This document shows, in pieces, positions 2,388 to 43,215 of a DNA stretch of 44,342 nt; the first letter of the stretch is position 1, and every line of letters starts with the position of its first letter. The DNA is from Candidatus Yonathbacteria bacterium RIFCSPHIGHO2_02_FULL_44_14 (GTDB lineage Bacteria; Patescibacteriota; Minisyncoccia; Phycocordibacterales; UBA1550). Under the pieces are notes generated by a model. The model had not been told where the DNA came from. It worked only from the letters and a program-made list of their open reading frames with translations, and made no database searches. The DNA lies in the NCBI GenBank assembly GCA_001823535.1, contig MHUT01000022.1, positions 1 to 44,342 of the forward strand, given 5' to 3'. The position numbers and the translations under genes are program-made.

Positions 2388-3749
2388 ATGAACGAAACGA
2401 GCTACGAAACCTTTTTCAAGGGCAAAAAGATTACCATGCTTGGCTTAGGGCTTTTGGGGCGTGGGGTCAATGTGGCGAAGTTCCTTGCAGAGCTTGATGC
2501 AGAGCTCATAATCACCGACTTGAAGGACTCCACAGCACTCGCGCCATCATTGAAACAGCTTACGAAGTTTAAGAATATTCGTTACGTTTTTGGCGAGCAC
2601 CGTTTCGAGGATTTCAAAAATTGCGATATGGTCATCAAGGCTGCGGGGGTACCGCTCGACTCTCCTTATATCGCCGAGGCAAACAAAAATAAAATTCCTG
2701 TAGAGATGGATGCGTCACTCTTTGCAAAATTTACGCCAGCAACTATTGTAGGTGTTACGGGAACAAGGGGCAAATCGACGGTTACGCATCTTATTGCACA
2801 CATACTCGAACGCGCATATCCGAAACATGTTTTTGTGGGTGGCAATGTTCGTGGTATAGCGACACTACCGCTTCTCAGGAAAACGAAGGTCGGTGATATT
2901 GTTGTATTGGAACTCGATTCGTGGCAATTGCAGGGTTTTGGTGAGGCAAAACTTTCCCCCAATATTGCGGTGTTTACCAATTTTTTACCTGATCACTTGA
3001 ATTACTACAAGGGTGATATGAGAAAATATTTTGACGATAAGGCAAACATTTTTAAGCACCAAAAGGAAGATGAGGTACTAGTGCTCGGGGAACAACTTTT
3101 GAAAACCCAAGAAGGGCGGTCCTTCCTGGACGCAAAAAGGAAGGGCGGTCCTTCCTGGGTTGTGGCGCGTAAAAGCATTGTGCCAAAGTCGTGGAAGATA
3201 AAGATTCCCGGCGAGCATAATCTTGCCAATATCGCTTGTGCTATTTTGGCTTGCAAGGAGTTGGATGTTCCGAAAGATGCAATTAAAAAAGGAGTGGAAA
3301 GTTTTGTGGGAGTTCCTGGGCGTCTGGAACTCGTATGCACTATAGGTGGGGTGAAATACTACAACGACACTACAGCAACAACCCCCGACGGCAACCGTGC
3401 CGCACTCGAGGCTCTTGGCGCTAAAAACAAAAAAAACATAATACTCATAGCTGGTGGTGCTGATAAGAATCTCGACTATACCGATATGGCTAAGTTTGTA
3501 CATAAGACCGTGAAAGGGCTCGTGCTCATTGAAGGTGTCGCAACAGAAAAACTTCTGGCAAAAATCCCAAAGAAAACTTCATACCCCGTATATATAGTGG
3601 ATAGCATGAGGGATGCGGTTGAAGCAGCGCGTGACTTTGCACGATATGGCGACACCATTCTGCTTTCGCCCGGTGCGGCAAGTTTTGGCGTTTTTAAAAA
3701 TGAATTCGACCGCGGGGACCAGTTTGTGAAGCTGGTGAAAAATATATAA
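2388..3749 (+). CDS. murD: UDP-N-acetylmuramoylalanine--D-glutamate ligase MurD
   Basis: MurD adds D-glutamate to UDP-MurNAc-L-Ala in the cytoplasm. The 453-aa protein has the Mur-ligase order: an N-terminal Rossmann-like domain, the ATP loop GTRGKST at residues 125-131 (commonly GTNGKST), DHLNYY at 202-207, the linker motif GRLELV near 311, NDTTATTPD at 326-334, and a C-terminal SPGAASFGVF plus DRGDQF. The ATG at 2388 is chosen over the upstream in-frame start because TATGAT ends six bases before it, indicating a leaderless message; there is no SD. Residues 242-257 are encoded by two copies of a palindromic repeat read in two frames (see findings). murC lies two genes downstream, as expected for a wall-synthesis block. 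Confidence 0.95.
   Translation: MNETSYETFFKGKKITMLGLGLLGRGVNVAKFLAELDAELIITDLKDSTALAPSLKQLTKFKNIRYVFGEHRFEDFKNCDMVIKAAGVPLDSPYIAEANKNKIPVEMDASLFAKFTPATIVGVTGTRGKSTVTHLIAHILERAYPKHVFVGGNVRGIATLPLLRKTKVGDIVVLELDSWQLQGFGEAKLSPNIAVFTNFLPDHLNYYKGDMRKYFDDKANIFKHQKEDEVLVLGEQLLKTQEGRSFLDAKRKGGPSWVVARKSIVPKSWKIKIPGEHNLANIACAILACKELDVPKDAIKKGVESFVGVPGRLELVCTIGGVKYYNDTTATTPDGNRAALEALGAKNKKNIILIAGGADKNLDYTDMAKFVHKTVKGLVLIEGVATEKLLAKIPKKTSYPVYIVDSMRDAVEAARDFARYGDTILLSPGAASFGVFKNEFDRGDQFVKLVKNI
3111..3158. repeat. Two copies of a 19-nt palindromic repeat inside murD
   Basis: GAAGGGCGGTCCTTCCTGG occurs at 3111-3129 and again at 3140-3158. Its core GGAAGGGCGGTCCTTCC is a hairpin-forming inverted repeat. The copies are 29 bases apart, so murD reads them in different frames (EGRSFL and KGGPSW). 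A third partial copy lies at 42495-42509. Confidence 0.8.
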
Positions 3750-3848: not shown

Positions 3849-4547
3849 ATGAAAGCTGTGATTTTTGCTGCAGGGGAGGGGAAGCGTTTGCTACCGCTTA
3901 CTCTCGAGTGTCCAAAACCTCTTGTTTTCGTGCTTGGCAAGCCTCTCATTCAGCATATATGGGAAGCCCTTCCCGATACGATTGATGAGGTGGTGATTGT
4001 CGTTGGGTATAAAAGTGGAATGATGCGAGATTTTCTCAAGGATGAGTTTATGGGGAAGTGCGTGACGTATGTCGAACAAAAAGAACCGCTCGGTACTGCT
4101 CATGCTCTAAAAATTTGCAGGCCCCATCTTGAAAACGAGAAAAAGTTTTTGCTCATGTATGCTGATGATCTCCATGGGGCGAGCGCCATTAAGCAATGCA
4201 CTGAGCATGAGTCTGCACTCCTTGTGCATTTTGTCGATGACCCGAGGCGTTTTGGTGTAGTTGTGACGAACGAAGATGGAACCATTAAAAATATTGAGGA
4301 GAAACCAGAACATCCAAAATCGAACCTTGCAGTAACCGGTGTGTATGTTCTGACTCCCAAAATTTTTGAATATGAATCAACACACGCTCAAAATGGCGAA
4401 TATTTTTTGACTGGCATGATAGAGGGATATATTAGACACAACCCAATGTTGGTTATCGAGAGTGATTTTTGGATACCTATTGCGTATCCGTACGACATTG
4501 TACACGCAGAGGAGATACTACTAGGGTTACCACACGCTGATGAATGA
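3849..4547 (+). CDS. Sugar-1-phosphate nucleotidyltransferase (NTP_transferase family)
   Basis: The 232-aa protein begins with the diagnostic nucleotide-binding motif of RmlA/GlmU-type enzymes, AAGEGKRLLPLT at about residues 7-18 followed by PKPL at 22-25, and it has VGYKSG and LLMYADD further on, where the metal-binding Asp lies. These enzymes join a sugar-1-phosphate to an NTP to give an NDP-sugar. There is no left-handed beta-helix, so it is not a full GlmU. It overlaps murC by 8 bases and is probably co-transcribed with it, so a role in UDP-GlcNAc or another wall-precursor supply is possible; the exact sugar cannot be read. TATAGT lies 11 bases before the ATG; there is no SD. Confidence 0.85.
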   Translation: MKAVIFAAGEGKRLLPLTLECPKPLVFVLGKPLIQHIWEALPDTIDEVVIVVGYKSGMMRDFLKDEFMGKCVTYVEQKEPLGTAHALKICRPHLENEKKFLLMYADDLHGASAIKQCTEHESALLVHFVDDPRRFGVVVTNEDGTIKNIEEKPEHPKSNLAVTGVYVLTPKIFEYESTHAQNGEYFLTGMIEGYIRHNPMLVIESDFWIPIAYPYDIVHAEEILLGLPHADE

Positions 4548-5838
4548 GGATTTCCTAAAAAATATTCACGCCGTGCATTTTGTTGGTATTGGCGGGATCG
4601 GCGTTTCCGCCGTTGCGAGACTCATGCTTGCACGTGGAGTTTCTGTGGTAGGATCCGATCGCGACCACTCACTCATTACTGAAAAACTCATGGCGGATGG
4701 TGCAATGATTTTTATCGGGCATGATGCTGTTCAAGTGTCGGCGCAATGCGACCTTCTTGTGTATTCGCCAGCAATATCGAGAGACAATCCCGAGCTTCTT
4801 ATCGCAAGGGAAAAAGGAGTGCAGGTGCTCTCATACCCAGAGGCGCTCGGTATGATCTCTCGTGGAATGCGCACTGTCGCTGTTGCGGGGACACATGGAA
4901 AGACCACAACAACAGCGATGATTGCAGAGGTTCTTGTGGGTGCCAGCAAGAACCCAACCGTCATCGTGGGCAGCCTCCTCAAATCTGGCACCAATTTTAT
5001 CGCAGGTACAAGCGATATTTTTATTGTTGAGGCGTGCGAGTACAAACGCTCATTTTTGAATCTTTCGCCAGAAATTCTCGTCATTACCAATATCGACAAT
5101 GATCATCTCGACTACTATGGAAGTATTGAAGGTGTACAAAAAGCATTTGCGGAGTTGGTAGAAAAAATTCCTGCGCACGGCGCTATCGTGTGCGACCCGA
5201 GCGACCCTCGTGTGGCACCCGTACTCACGAAAGCAGTCGCGCGGATTGTCGACTACACACTTGGAAACCCGACGTCCAAGTTAGAGCTTGCAGTCTCAGG
5301 GGAGCATAATAAAAAGAATGCCAGAGCTGCTCTAGCAGTCGCGCGTATTCTTGATGTCGACGAAATAGAGGCCTGCACACTCCTCGCAGAGTTTCAAGGA
5401 ACATGGCGGCGCATGGAATACAAAGGTAAAATAGAAAATGGTGGGCTCGTGTATGATGACTATGCACACCACCCAACAGAGGTAAAAGCAACACTGCAGG
5501 GGTTTCGCGCAAAGTACCCGGACCACCGCATCCGCGTCGTTTTTCAGCCGCACCTTTACTCACGCACGAAACTTCTCCTTAATGATTTTGCACAAAGTTT
5601 TAGCGATGCCGACGAGGTCATCGTTGCACCTATCTATGCCGCACGCGAGAAACCAGATTCAGAAATCAACGCAGGAATTCTTGCTGGAGAGATTACAAAA
5701 AATCATCTCAATACGCGCACCTTTGGTGATTTCCTTGCCATTGAAAAATATGTACGTAGTACTACCACATCGAATGATGTCATTATTACGATGGGAGCCG
5801 GAGATATATACAGAATAGGAGATAGTGTGGTAGTGTAA
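4540..5838 (+). CDS. murC: UDP-N-acetylmuramate--L-alanine ligase MurC
   Basis: MurC attaches L-alanine to UDP-MurNAc, the first peptide step of peptidoglycan synthesis. The 432-aa protein shows the MurC-specific N-terminal GIGGIGVSAVA (residues 17-27), the ATP loop GTHGKTTTT (117-125), CEYKRSFL near 167, NDHLDYY (187-193), the linker GTWRRMEYKG, and YDDYAHHPTEVKA near residue 305, which is typical of MurC. The start overlaps the nucleotidyltransferase stop by 8 bases, implying translational coupling. rsmI begins 11 bases after the stop. Confidence 0.96.
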   Translation: MNEDFLKNIHAVHFVGIGGIGVSAVARLMLARGVSVVGSDRDHSLITEKLMADGAMIFIGHDAVQVSAQCDLLVYSPAISRDNPELLIAREKGVQVLSYPEALGMISRGMRTVAVAGTHGKTTTTAMIAEVLVGASKNPTVIVGSLLKSGTNFIAGTSDIFIVEACEYKRSFLNLSPEILVITNIDNDHLDYYGSIEGVQKAFAELVEKIPAHGAIVCDPSDPRVAPVLTKAVARIVDYTLGNPTSKLELAVSGEHNKKNARAALAVARILDVDEIEACTLLAEFQGTWRRMEYKGKIENGGLVYDDYAHHPTEVKATLQGFRAKYPDHRIRVVFQPHLYSRTKLLLNDFAQSFSDADEVIVAPIYAAREKPDSEINAGILAGEITKNHLNTRTFGDFLAIEKYVRSTTTSNDVIITMGAGDIYRIGDSVVV

Positions 5839-40504: not shown

Positions 40505-42448
40505 ATGAATATTCATAAGATTTTGGCGAATGCGGTCGTAATCGTGGGCTTCGCCCTAGTGCCGTTTATTCCGTTTGTCGTGCTCGGGGGAAACACATTT
40601 TTCCCTTATATCGTTGGTAAAAATTTCGCCTTCCGCATAATTGTTGAGATTATGTTTTCTGCGTGGATCGTTCTTGCGTACATCAATCCTGCGTATCGTC
40701 CAAAGAAAAGCTATTTGCTTGGCGCGTTTGTGGCGCTCCTTGGTATCATCACAATCTCTGCCATTTTTGGTGAAAATCCTGCGAAGAGCTTCTGGTCCAA
40801 TTTTGAACGAATGGAGGGTGTTGTGACTTATTTTCACTTATTCGCATATTTTATTATTGCGTCTACTGTTCTTACGGTGCGCAATCTATGGCGACCATAT
40901 CTTAACCTTCATCTCGCCACGGGTGTTGCAATGGCGATTTATGGCGTGTTCCAATGGGCTGGCGATCTAGAAATCGTGCAGGATGGCATGCGTGTGAATG
41001 GGACACTCGGCAATGCGGCGTACCTCGGCACTTATGCACTTTTCAATGTTTTTCTTGCAGCATTTTTTATGGTGCGCGAAAGTTTTACCACCACAGAGGA
41101 GAAAGTGCGCGTGGCGATGTATGGCGCAGTCGTCGTTCTTCAAACATTTGTGCTGTACCATACGGCCACGCGTGGCGCAATGCTCGGGCTCCTTGCAGGA
41201 GCTGGACTCGCAACGCTTCTCATTGCGCTGTTCGAGCGTGAAAAAAAGATTATCCGCAACGGCGCGATAGGAGTTCTTGTGGCGCTCACTATTTTTGTCG
41301 CTGGGTTTATTGCAATGCGTGACGCATCGTTTGTGCATGAAAGTCCTGTGCTCTCGCGCTTCGCAGCGATATCGCTCACCGAGCAAACCACGAAATCGCG
41401 CTTTATGATCTGGAATATGGCGTACCAAGGTTTCAAGGAGCATCCAGTGCTTGGGTGGGGGATGGAGAATTTTAATTATGTCTTCAATAAGTACTATGAC
41501 CCAAAGATGTATGGACAGGAGCAGTGGTTCGACCGCGCGCACAACGTGTTTTTTGATTGGCTTATTGCAGGCGGGTTGCCCGCACTCCTTGCATACCTCG
41601 CACTCTTTGCGTGTGCGGTGTATTGTATTTGGCGCCGCGCCGATGAACTTTCAGTCGTTGAAAAAAGTGTTCTTACCGGTCTCCTTGGCGGATATTTTTT
41701 TCAGAACCTTTTTGTGTTCGATAATATTACAAGCCTTATTTATTTTGGAACGATCCTTGCGTATGTTGAAGGTGTGAGTTACAAAACTCCCGCCTTTGTA
41801 AAGGAAAAAAATATAAAGAAACCAATGGCAGGCGAGGAAGATCTAACATTTATGGTTTCTGGCGGCGCTCTCATCCTCGCGCTCATGCTCGTCTATACAG
41901 TGAATTACAATGGCTTTATGCAGAATACGACGCTTATGCGCGCAATGAGCGAGCGCACAAAGGAGGGGCCGATGCATAATCTCGCGCTTTTTAGGGAAAC
42001 TCTTGCATATGGCTCGTTTGGAACATCGGAGGGGCGCGAACAGCTTGGGCAACTTTCAATGGGCGCATTTGATACCTCAAAGGGTGTTTCAGATATACAG
42101 AAGGCATTCCTCATTCTTGCTGATGAAGAGCTTCAAAAACAGGCGGCAGAACTCCCGCTTGATGCGCGGTATCAGCTTTTTGCAGGAAGTTTCCTTGCGC
42201 GTGTGGGACAGCTTGATAAAGCAATCGAATACCTTGAGAAAGCACATGCACTTTCACCAAAGAAGCAGACAATTTTATTTGATCTGGGAAGCGCATATTA
42301 CAACAAGAAAGACATGGTGAAGGCTGAAGCGACATTCAAGAAAGCGTACGAGCTTGCTCCAGAATACGGAGAAGCAAAAAAACTATATATTCAGATATTG
42401 GAAGCGAACGGTAAAAATGCCGAAGCCAAAAAGATTTCAAATCAGTAG
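40505..42448 (+). CDS. O-antigen ligase/polymerase-like membrane protein with C-terminal TPRs
   Basis: The 647-aa protein has about 11 membrane helices in residues 10-475 and the Wzy_C/WaaL signature: RFMIWNMAYQGFKEHPVLGW, then RAHNVFFDWLIAGGLPALL with His346 in the large outer loop. A soluble C-terminal region with at least two TPRs follows (LDKAIEYLEKAHALSPK and FDLGSAYYNKKDMVKAEATF, about residues 570-640). It would join flipped glycan units to each other or to a lipid or protein acceptor. TATATT ends six bases before the ATG. Its codons are G+C-rich (34 of 60 in 41521-41580), like the outer flank. Confidence 0.9.
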   Translation: MNIHKILANAVVIVGFALVPFIPFVVLGGNTFFPYIVGKNFAFRIIVEIMFSAWIVLAYINPAYRPKKSYLLGAFVALLGIITISAIFGENPAKSFWSNFERMEGVVTYFHLFAYFIIASTVLTVRNLWRPYLNLHLATGVAMAIYGVFQWAGDLEIVQDGMRVNGTLGNAAYLGTYALFNVFLAAFFMVRESFTTTEEKVRVAMYGAVVVLQTFVLYHTATRGAMLGLLAGAGLATLLIALFEREKKIIRNGAIGVLVALTIFVAGFIAMRDASFVHESPVLSRFAAISLTEQTTKSRFMIWNMAYQGFKEHPVLGWGMENFNYVFNKYYDPKMYGQEQWFDRAHNVFFDWLIAGGLPALLAYLALFACAVYCIWRRADELSVVEKSVLTGLLGGYFFQNLFVFDNITSLIYFGTILAYVEGVSYKTPAFVKEKNIKKPMAGEEDLTFMVSGGALILALMLVYTVNYNGFMQNTTLMRAMSERTKEGPMHNLALFRETLAYGSFGTSEGREQLGQLSMGAFDTSKGVSDIQKAFLILADEELQKQAAELPLDARYQLFAGSFLARVGQLDKAIEYLEKAHALSPKKQTILFDLGSAYYNKKDMVKAEATFKKAYELAPEYGEAKKLYIQILEANGKNAEAKKISNQ

Positions 42449-42495
42449 AAGACCTCGACGCATTCATCGAAGATTGGATGTCTTATGGTGATTAG
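42448..42495 (+). pseudogene. Possible remnant of a nucleotidyltransferase C-terminus
   Basis: Read from 42448, the frame encodes EDLDAFIEDWMSYGD and a stop. EDLDAF is identical to the C-terminal EDLDAF of the nucleotidyltransferase at 33709. No start or further homology lies upstream, where the ligase gene ends in another frame. It is suggestive but very short. Confidence 0.3.
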
Positions 42496-42509
42496 GAAGG
42501 GCGGTCCTT
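42495..42509. repeat. Third copy of the palindromic repeat found in murD
   Basis: GGAAGGGCGGTCCTT matches the core of the two murD copies at 3111-3158. This copy is intergenic, between the ligase gene and the gene at 42577. Confidence 0.65.
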
Positions 42510-42576
42510 AGTAAAAAGTTATCCACAGATGAATGAGTAAAAATTATGGGTTTTTATAGGGACTTGGTAGAATTAA

Positions 42577-43215
42577 GTGAATTATATGAATATGGATGAG
42601 AACACAAAAATGAAGATTAAGAAGACGTGGACAGTGTTATGGAAGGGGGTTGTGGTTCTTGTTGCTATCTTTGTTACAGTGACTCTGTTGCGTGTTTTGT
42701 ATGTCTCAAAGAATACGCCAGCGCAGGTCACAAAAATACATGCGACGAAGCTCACGATGGATGATGTGATGGGGGTGAATCTACCGACTGATCCGGGTGC
42801 GGAAGCTGACAAAACCGTGGCAGGTATTGATGCGAATAAAAATGGTATTCGCGATGATGTGGAACTTGCTATTTTTAAAGAATATCCGGACTCTACAAAG
42901 ACGAGAGCGGTACTTTTGCAGTATGCGCTGGTGCTTCAGATGGAGATGACTTTGCCGATTTTGAATAGGGAAACAGCCACAGCTGTTGTGGAGGATAATG
43001 AAAGTAGGGCAGATATATGCTTATGGAGCCTCAGTTCTCGTGCAGATATGGATAAATTTATGAGGGAAACTGAAAAAAATGAAAACTTTGTTAAAGACCG
43101 TCAACTCAACACGGAAGAAAGAAAAAACTACCTGCATAATTTTTATAAATATGTGGGTAGCTATAGTGCATCAAATGATGGCTGTGACATAGATGTTTCT
43201 GAATTGCGAAACTAA
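42577..43215 (+). CDS. Membrane-anchored protein with possible Ca-binding motif
   Basis: The 212-aa protein has a basic N-terminus and one membrane helix (about residues 20-42), so most of it should lie outside the cytoplasm. IDANKNGIRDDVELAIF near residue 85 resembles the Asp/Asn-rich calcium loops of thrombospondin type 3 or dockerin-like repeats. The C-terminal half is helical and contains two cysteines. The start may be GTG at 42577 or the in-frame ATG at 42586; TAGAAT lies just upstream and there is no SD. The hydrolase gene begins two bases after its stop, so they form an operon. No family is recognised. Confidence 0.65.
   Translation: MNYMNMDENTKMKIKKTWTVLWKGVVVLVAIFVTVTLLRVLYVSKNTPAQVTKIHATKLTMDDVMGVNLPTDPGAEADKTVAGIDANKNGIRDDVELAIFKEYPDSTKTRAVLLQYALVLQMEMTLPILNRETATAVVEDNESRADICLWSLSSRADMDKFMRETEKNENFVKDRQLNTEERKNYLHNFYKYVGSYSASNDGCDIDVSELRN

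What the first reader, a model, noticed from the sequence alone, without database searches (positions are those of the whole stretch)
3111..3158. Palindromic repeat inserted twice inside murD and read in two frames
A 19-nt hairpin-forming sequence occurs twice in murD, 29 bases apart, so the same DNA encodes EGRSFL and then KGGPSW. A third copy is intergenic at 42495-42509. Dispersed palindromes that insert into essential genes without breaking the frame recall the protein-inserted RPE repeats of Rickettsia. Here the insert lies in a loop between the MurD central and C-terminal motifs.
Basis: partly seen in the sequence, partly recalled or inferred. Interest (0 to 1): 0.6.

Follow-up and report, generated by a model that had tools for sequence, protein, structure and literature searches.

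The report
Mobile hairpin repeat inside murD
Two copies of a short mobile hairpin sequence sit inside an essential cell-wall gene of an uncultured ultra-small bacterium and are translated as part of the enzyme; this repeat belongs to a transposase-linked family, the remains of whose transposase gene survive 39 kb away in the same window.

Summary
A 19-nt palindrome occurs twice in murD (3111-3129, 3140-3158). Its 13-nt core occurs 8 times in the 757-kb genome, against 0 for the reversed control. The genome is Candidatus Yonathbacteria (Patescibacteria).

The two murD copies form one 22-bp hairpin (3104-3161), the architecture of a REPIN (REP doublet). Ten close MurD relatives lack it; the net gain is only 4 residues, because it replaced about 14 ancestral codons. 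In a sister species the same MurD loop holds a different palindromic element.

The family is RAYT-linked. In another family of the class, the exact core brackets a REP-associated tyrosine transposase gene and also lies inside its ORF, encoding the same EGRSF peptide as murD. The third window copy (42495-42509) is the 3' REP of a dead RAYT locus: a 22-codon RAYT C-terminus, the REP, then a gene found beside ten other RAYTs.

Other palindrome families in this genome insert 8-11 residues in frame into cysS, tig, rpsA, dprA, uvrA, comEC and pheT.

The Rickettsia RPE comparison is right as a phenomenon and wrong as a family. Intragenic REPs are already published. Less expected: many of these RAYT ORFs carry their own REP at a fixed codon, with compensatory base changes.

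The parts
3104..3161 (+). REP doublet (REPIN-like hairpin): 22 bp stem with 3 single mismatches and a 10-nt loop, inside murD
   Evidence: strand folding DNA -17.8 kcal/mol (z -4.1) and RNA -38.4 kcal/mol (z -5.7), 0 of 200 shuffles as stable
3111..3129 (+). REP copy 1 (GAAGGGCGGTCCTTCCTGG), read as QEGRSFLD, the same frame as the REP inside the RAYT ORFs of G107 and G129
3140..3158 (+). REP copy 2 (GAAGGGCGGTCCTTCCTGG), read as RKGGPSW in another frame
2388..3749 (+). murD, UDP-N-acetylmuramoyl-L-alanine--D-glutamate ligase, host gene of the doublet
   Evidence: TIGR01087 355 bits; Pfam Mur_ligase_M and Mur_ligase_C
42427..42495 (+). remnant of a RAYT C-terminus (QKDFKSVEDLDAFIEDWMSYGD, then stop TAG 42493-42495)
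   Evidence: best non-RAYT fragment of 22,821 in the genome against a RAYT profile, E 0.85 genome-wide; tblastn 67% identity to the G011 RAYT C-terminus, E 3e-4; stop/REP/TTATCCACA layout as at intact RAYT loci
42495..42509 (+). third REP copy (GGAAGGGCGGTCCTT), the 3' REP of the dead RAYT locus
42577..43215 (+). RAYT companion gene (212 aa, no Pfam or NCBIfam match); homologues sit directly downstream of ten other RAYT loci
   Evidence: tblastn E 1e-51 to 1e-67 in L193-L195, L197-L199, L203, L212, L254 and others; no family match
5257..5279 (-). another palindrome family (F3, ACTTGGACGTCGGGTTTCCAAGT) inside murC (ORF 4540-5838), read as LGNPTSK; F3 brackets and lies inside an own-genome RAYT on C1
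   Evidence: TIGR01082 murC 434 bits

Best explanation
The feature is a REP doublet (REPIN) of a RAYT system, the IS200/IS605-like HUH tyrosine transposases, in a Candidatus Yonathbacteria genome. Inferred mechanism: while a RAYT of this family was active, it recognised the single-stranded REP hairpin and moved or copied doublets to new sites. One landed in a surface segment of murD. It was tolerated because the palindrome has stop-free frames on this strand and because flanking bases were lost until the frame fitted, leaving a net +12 nt. Shown: the repeat family, the hairpin, absence from relatives, translation in frame, linkage of the exact core to a RAYT in another family, and the RAYT remnant with companion gene at the third window copy. 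Inferred: that the RAYT mobilised the doublet, that the family is now inactive in this genome for lack of its RAYT, and that the murD product still works.
For: Core 8 times in the genome, control 0, and present in 9 of 16 genus members. The murD pair folds into one hairpin, and doublets spaced 18-28 nt recur in other genomes. Ten close MurD relatives lack it. Y1 transposases were found in 14 of 16 genus genomes. RAYT clades match REP types, AAGG-n5-CCTT for most of the main clade. The exact core flanks and lies inside RAYT ORFs in G107 and G129 (Pfam Y1_Tnp above cut-off). The same doublet occurs in frame in MurC of G129 and LepA of G107. RAYT remnant, REP, GTTATCCACAG and companion gene lie together at 42427-43215. 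In-frame inserts of other palindrome families occur in core genes.
Against: No intact RAYT of this genome is flanked by the exact core. The two murD copies are in direct orientation by their asymmetric centre (GCGGT), whereas the other doublets seen are inverted, although both copies are near-palindromic and pair well. There is no conserved GTAG foot. The remnant is short and alone scores only E 0.85 genome-wide; synteny carries it. The nearest relatives are about 83% identical in MurD, so the insertion event itself cannot be reconstructed. The genome is a draft assembly without expression data.
Confidence: 0.9

Rival explanations
1. Protein-inserted selfish palindrome of the Rickettsia RPE kind, unrelated to any transposase.
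For: Behaviour is the same: in-frame insertion in essential genes, translated in more than one frame, probably a surface segment. The co-resident F2/F4 elements have no RAYT beside them in the loci examined and so resemble RPEs more.
Against: This core is the REP of a RAYT in G107 and G129, and its third window copy abuts a RAYT remnant. RPEs are described as 100-150 bp (PMC3767692); this doublet is 58 nt.
Confidence: 0.05
2. The hairpins are transcription terminators or RNA-level elements whose apex is conserved by selection, and the murD copies are a by-product.
For: Most copies are intergenic; one relative's copy lies just after what looks like a tRNA 3' end, with a T-rich stem (L042).
Against: Several copies lack T-runs (L036, L041); copies lie inside RAYT, murD, murC and lepA ORFs; RAYT loci carry them on both sides.
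Confidence: 0.03
3. Chance or protein-level selection: MurD happens to encode two similar segments.
For: The loop varies in length across distant MurD proteins.
Against: 19 identical nt read in two frames; 0 of 100 shuffles reach the window count; genome excess 8 against 0.
Confidence: 0.01

Closest known systems
REPINs / RAYT-associated REPs (Pseudomonas fluorescens SBW25, E. coli, Stenotrophomonas; PMC3116915, PMC2817692, PMC8266576)
   Same: Short palindromes, often as doublets forming one hairpin; RAYT genes bracketed by their own REP; several REP types per genome, each matching a RAYT lineage.
   Different: Patescibacteria; low copy number (8); no GTAG foot; doublets inside essential genes; many RAYT ORFs hold their own REP at a fixed codon, for which word searches of PMC2817692 (inside, internal, within the coding) and PMC6006769 gave no mention.
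Intragenic REPs of Opitutus terrae, Thauera, Rickettsia conorii and others (PMC3733652)
   Same: REP singles and dimers inside ORFs, translated, often in DNA repair genes (uvrA also here).
   Different: Different sequences and phylum; the RAYT link is shown here by locus anatomy; the same MurD loop was hit by two unrelated elements in two species.
Rickettsia palindromic elements (RPE-1 to RPE-7; PMC3767692)
   Same: In-frame protein-inserted palindromes in solvent-exposed segments.
   Different: Longer (100-150 bp); not linked to a RAYT. RPE-4 and RPE-6 are classed as CGTC-type REPs by PMC3733652, which also found CGTC REPs not associated with transposases.

Membership tests
RAYT-associated REP | Short palindrome dispersed in the genome above chance | tested here: met
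   8 copies against 0 in control
RAYT-associated REP | Same palindrome flanks a RAYT (Y1 HUH transposase) gene on both sides | tested here: met
   Exact core on both sides of RAYT in G107:C4 and G129:C36; in the window's own genome only a C-terminal RAYT remnant with the 3' REP is left
RAYT-associated REP | The flanked gene is a RAYT | tested here: met
   Pfam Y1_Tnp above cut-off; the only NCBIfam hit is NF047646 REP_Tyr_transpos, but below its curated cut-off, 49.5 and 37.6 against 80 bits
RAYT-associated REP | RAYT cleaves and joins the single-stranded REP | not testable with these tools
   needs purified protein
GTAG REP superfamily (PMC3733652) | Conserved GTAG at the hairpin foot | tested here: not met
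   No common GTAG beside the copies; some G107 and G129 copies have a CTAG/TTAG-like motif some 10 nt away instead
REPIN | Two REPs form one long hairpin | tested here: met
   3104-3161, 22 bp
REPIN | REPs in inverted orientation | tested here: inconclusive
   Direct by the central GCGGT; near-palindromic, so also pairs as inverted; other doublets of the core are inverted
Rickettsia RPE | In-frame insertion in protein genes | tested here: met
Rickettsia RPE | Length of 100-150 bp | tested here: not met
   The unit is 58 nt; length of RPEs from PMC3767692
Rickettsia RPE | Sequence kinship to an RPE family | not tested
   No RPE sequence was compared directly

The most novel reading that the evidence does not exclude
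In these Patescibacteria the RAYT coding sequence itself carries a working copy of its own REP at a fixed codon (YYH motif +47). It is maintained as nucleic-acid structure through compensatory changes that alter the protein. The RAYT would therefore recognise its own gene or mRNA (self-limitation or self-copying), and translated REPs such as those in murD and murC would be a normal, tolerated outcome of this system rather than accidents.
Probability: 0.3. Interest if true: 0.7.

Novelty: new variant of a known kind. Interest (0 to 1): 0.52.

Why it matters
REPs are named extragenic, and how they spread is unsolved (PMC8266576). Here is a small-genome lineage in which REP-type palindromes enter essential genes (murD, murC, lepA) and other palindrome families add peptides to cysS, rpsA, uvrA, dprA and others. 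RAYT loci can be compared intact and dead, and a REP inside the RAYT ORF gives a testable handle on recognition. It also supplies a case, outside Rickettsia, of mobile palindromes generating new protein segments, including two unrelated elements at the same MurD loop.

Tried and rejected
DNA-uptake-sequence idea: rejected, 8 copies is far too few. Terminator idea: rejected as the main account, since several hairpins lack T-runs and copies lie inside ORFs. Own RAYT with an exact-core flank: not found in G000; explained by the remnant at 42427. Literature searches for palindromic repeats in Patescibacteria and for Yonathbacteria gave nothing on this. Permutation test of internal against flanking REPs is partly circular because internal copies were picked by similarity; the homologous-block test is not, and is weaker (mean mismatches 2.0 own, 3.7 other). 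The internal REP is not universal: 3 of 20 RAYTs of other families of the order. E. coli rayT has no such hairpin, but the scan also missed its known bulged flanking REPs, so that control is weak. Pattern CGTCCNNGACGNGAA outside the genus is near background. A few rows are antisense or weak frames and were not counted. Two family scans failed on bad references and were rerun.

Full report
What is there. The window is contig C22 of a 757,440-base, 99% complete genome. Its MurD relatives at about 80% identity are named Candidatus Yonathbacteria, with some records titled Nomurabacteria or Parcubacteria. GAAGGGCGGTCCTTCCTGG stands at 3111-3129 and 3140-3158 in murD, and the core again at 42495-42509. 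The core is found 8 times in the genome against 0 for the reversed control, and in 9 of 16 genus members, again with control 0.

The unit. The two murD copies with their flanks fold as one hairpin, 3104-3161, 22 pairs with three mismatches and a 10-nt loop, in DNA and in RNA, better than all 200 shuffles. Pairs of the core 18-28 nt apart recur in other genomes, always inverted there. The murD pair is direct by its centre, but each copy is nearly its own reverse complement. I therefore read it as one REP doublet.

Insertion test. In close relatives without an element here the stretch between GEQ and AKKS is 18-19 residues, with no palindrome; in the window it is 23. At the DNA level about 42-45 ancestral bases are replaced by 54-57. 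It is not a clean in-frame insertion but an insertion with loss. In L090 (G011) the same loop holds another element, ATGGCCGAGCTTGCGTCCGGGACGTGAACCTGCTGGTTCAGAATCAGCTGATTCG, a net +18 residues over the usual length. That element is a variant of the F2/F4 family dispersed in this genus. AlphaFold2 (mean pLDDT 88.9) puts residues 241-250 in a helix followed by a turn, with block confidence 70-75 where most of the model is near 90.

RAYT linkage. Y1 transposases (PF01797) occur in 14 of 16 genus genomes and in 74 of 118 sampled genomes of the order. Most RAYTs outside the IS200-like branch are bracketed by a hairpin family of their own. The main clade mostly has AAGG-n5-CCTT, a second clade CTTGGAGG-CCTCCAAG, a third CCNAGGACSGTCCTNGG. 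The G006 RAYT has CCCCAGGAAGGCCGGGCCTTCCTGGGG, close to the window's composite CCCAGGAAGGGCGGTCCTTCCTGGG. In another family of the class, G107 has 29 copies of the exact core and G129 has 9. In both, the core flanks a RAYT on either side and lies in its ORF as EGRSF, the peptide of the first murD copy. Doublets of the core lie in frame in G129 MurC and G107 LepA.

The dead RAYT locus in the window. At 42427-42495 the + strand reads QKDFKSVEDLDAFIEDWMSYGD-stop, which aligns to the end of the RAYT profile (positions 207-226). It is the best non-RAYT fragment among 22,821 in the genome, though only E 0.85 alone, and 67% identical to the G011 RAYT (E 3e-4). The REP follows at once, then GTTATCCACAG at 42518, as at intact RAYT loci. 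ORF 42577-43215 is homologous to the gene beside ten other RAYTs. The third copy is thus the 3' end of a decayed RAYT locus. This explains the absence of an intact RAYT with this REP in the genome and, by inference, the low copy number.

Wider setting. The genome has further palindrome families. Against the G008 orthologues they make in-frame net insertions in CysS (+9 residues), trigger factor (+8), ribosomal protein S1 (+9), DprA (+9), UvrA (+11), a ComEC-like protein (+9) and PheT (+8). G008 shows the same in the other direction. The F2/F4 elements have no RAYT beside them in the loci seen, so their mobiliser is unknown.

REP inside the RAYT gene. In the main clade a REP matching the flanks lies 47 codons after the YYH motif in seven RAYTs and within a few codons of that in others. 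Across 11 internal sites 93% of arm cells pair, with 25 compensatory cells; 0 of 500 shuffles reach this and slid controls are far lower. The homologous-block test supports it. Outside this set it is seen in 3 of 20 RAYTs.

Status of the claims. Shown: the repeat, hairpin, absence in relatives, frame, RAYT linkage and remnant. Inferred: mobilisation by the RAYT, present inactivity, and that the altered MurD works. Known before: REPs, REPINs, RAYTs, intragenic REPs and RPEs (PMC3116915, PMC2817692, PMC8266576, PMC3733652, PMC3767692). Not found in what I searched: RAYT/REP systems of this kind in Patescibacteria, and REPs inside RAYT ORFs; the search was limited to an open-access library.

Noticed in passing
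RAYT ORFs in L194, L195, L203, L212, L216, L227, L228 and others; for example L212:1758-1774: RAYT coding sequences carry a copy of their own flanking REP at a fixed codon (YYH +47) with compensatory changes; a second RAYT clade has two internal copies (about +53 and +147).
   Followed up: partly
window 5257-5279 in murC (ORF 4540-5838): A second, unrelated palindrome family (F3) lies in the neighbouring Mur ligase gene, read as LGNPTSK, net +2 residues against G008.
   Followed up: partly
G000 C6:53892, C8:23108, C11:11058, C18:11136, C6:95610, C6:63420, C18:131263, C1:6625: F2/F4 palindromes insert peptides such as ESADSRLGRE or RPRRESADSE into core proteins; no mobiliser was found beside them.
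   Followed up: partly
G000 C6:66940-66958 and G008 C5:94481-94499: The F3 palindrome is identical at the same place of a probable tgt gene in two species (HLETRRPSG), so either an old shared insertion or a source of the family.
   Followed up: no
window 42518-42528; 3' sides of RAYTs in L194, L195, L197-L199, L203, L212: GTTATCCACAG or a near variant (containing TTATCCACA, a DnaA-box-like 9-mer) follows the 3' REP of RAYT loci; GTTATCCACAG occurs 10 times and TTATCCACA 31 times in the genome.
   Followed up: no
window 42577-43215: Companion gene of RAYTs with no Pfam or NCBIfam match and a hydrophobic segment near its N-terminus, conserved beside ten RAYT loci.
   Followed up: partly
G000 C3:9048-10092 and C13:58-70: Two contigs share the flanks of the core (AAAAAGCGTCTATTCCC on one side, TGCGCCTTACCAAACAAC on the other), with 1 kb between two core copies on C3: possible recombination or insertion at REPs, or an assembly break.
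   Followed up: no
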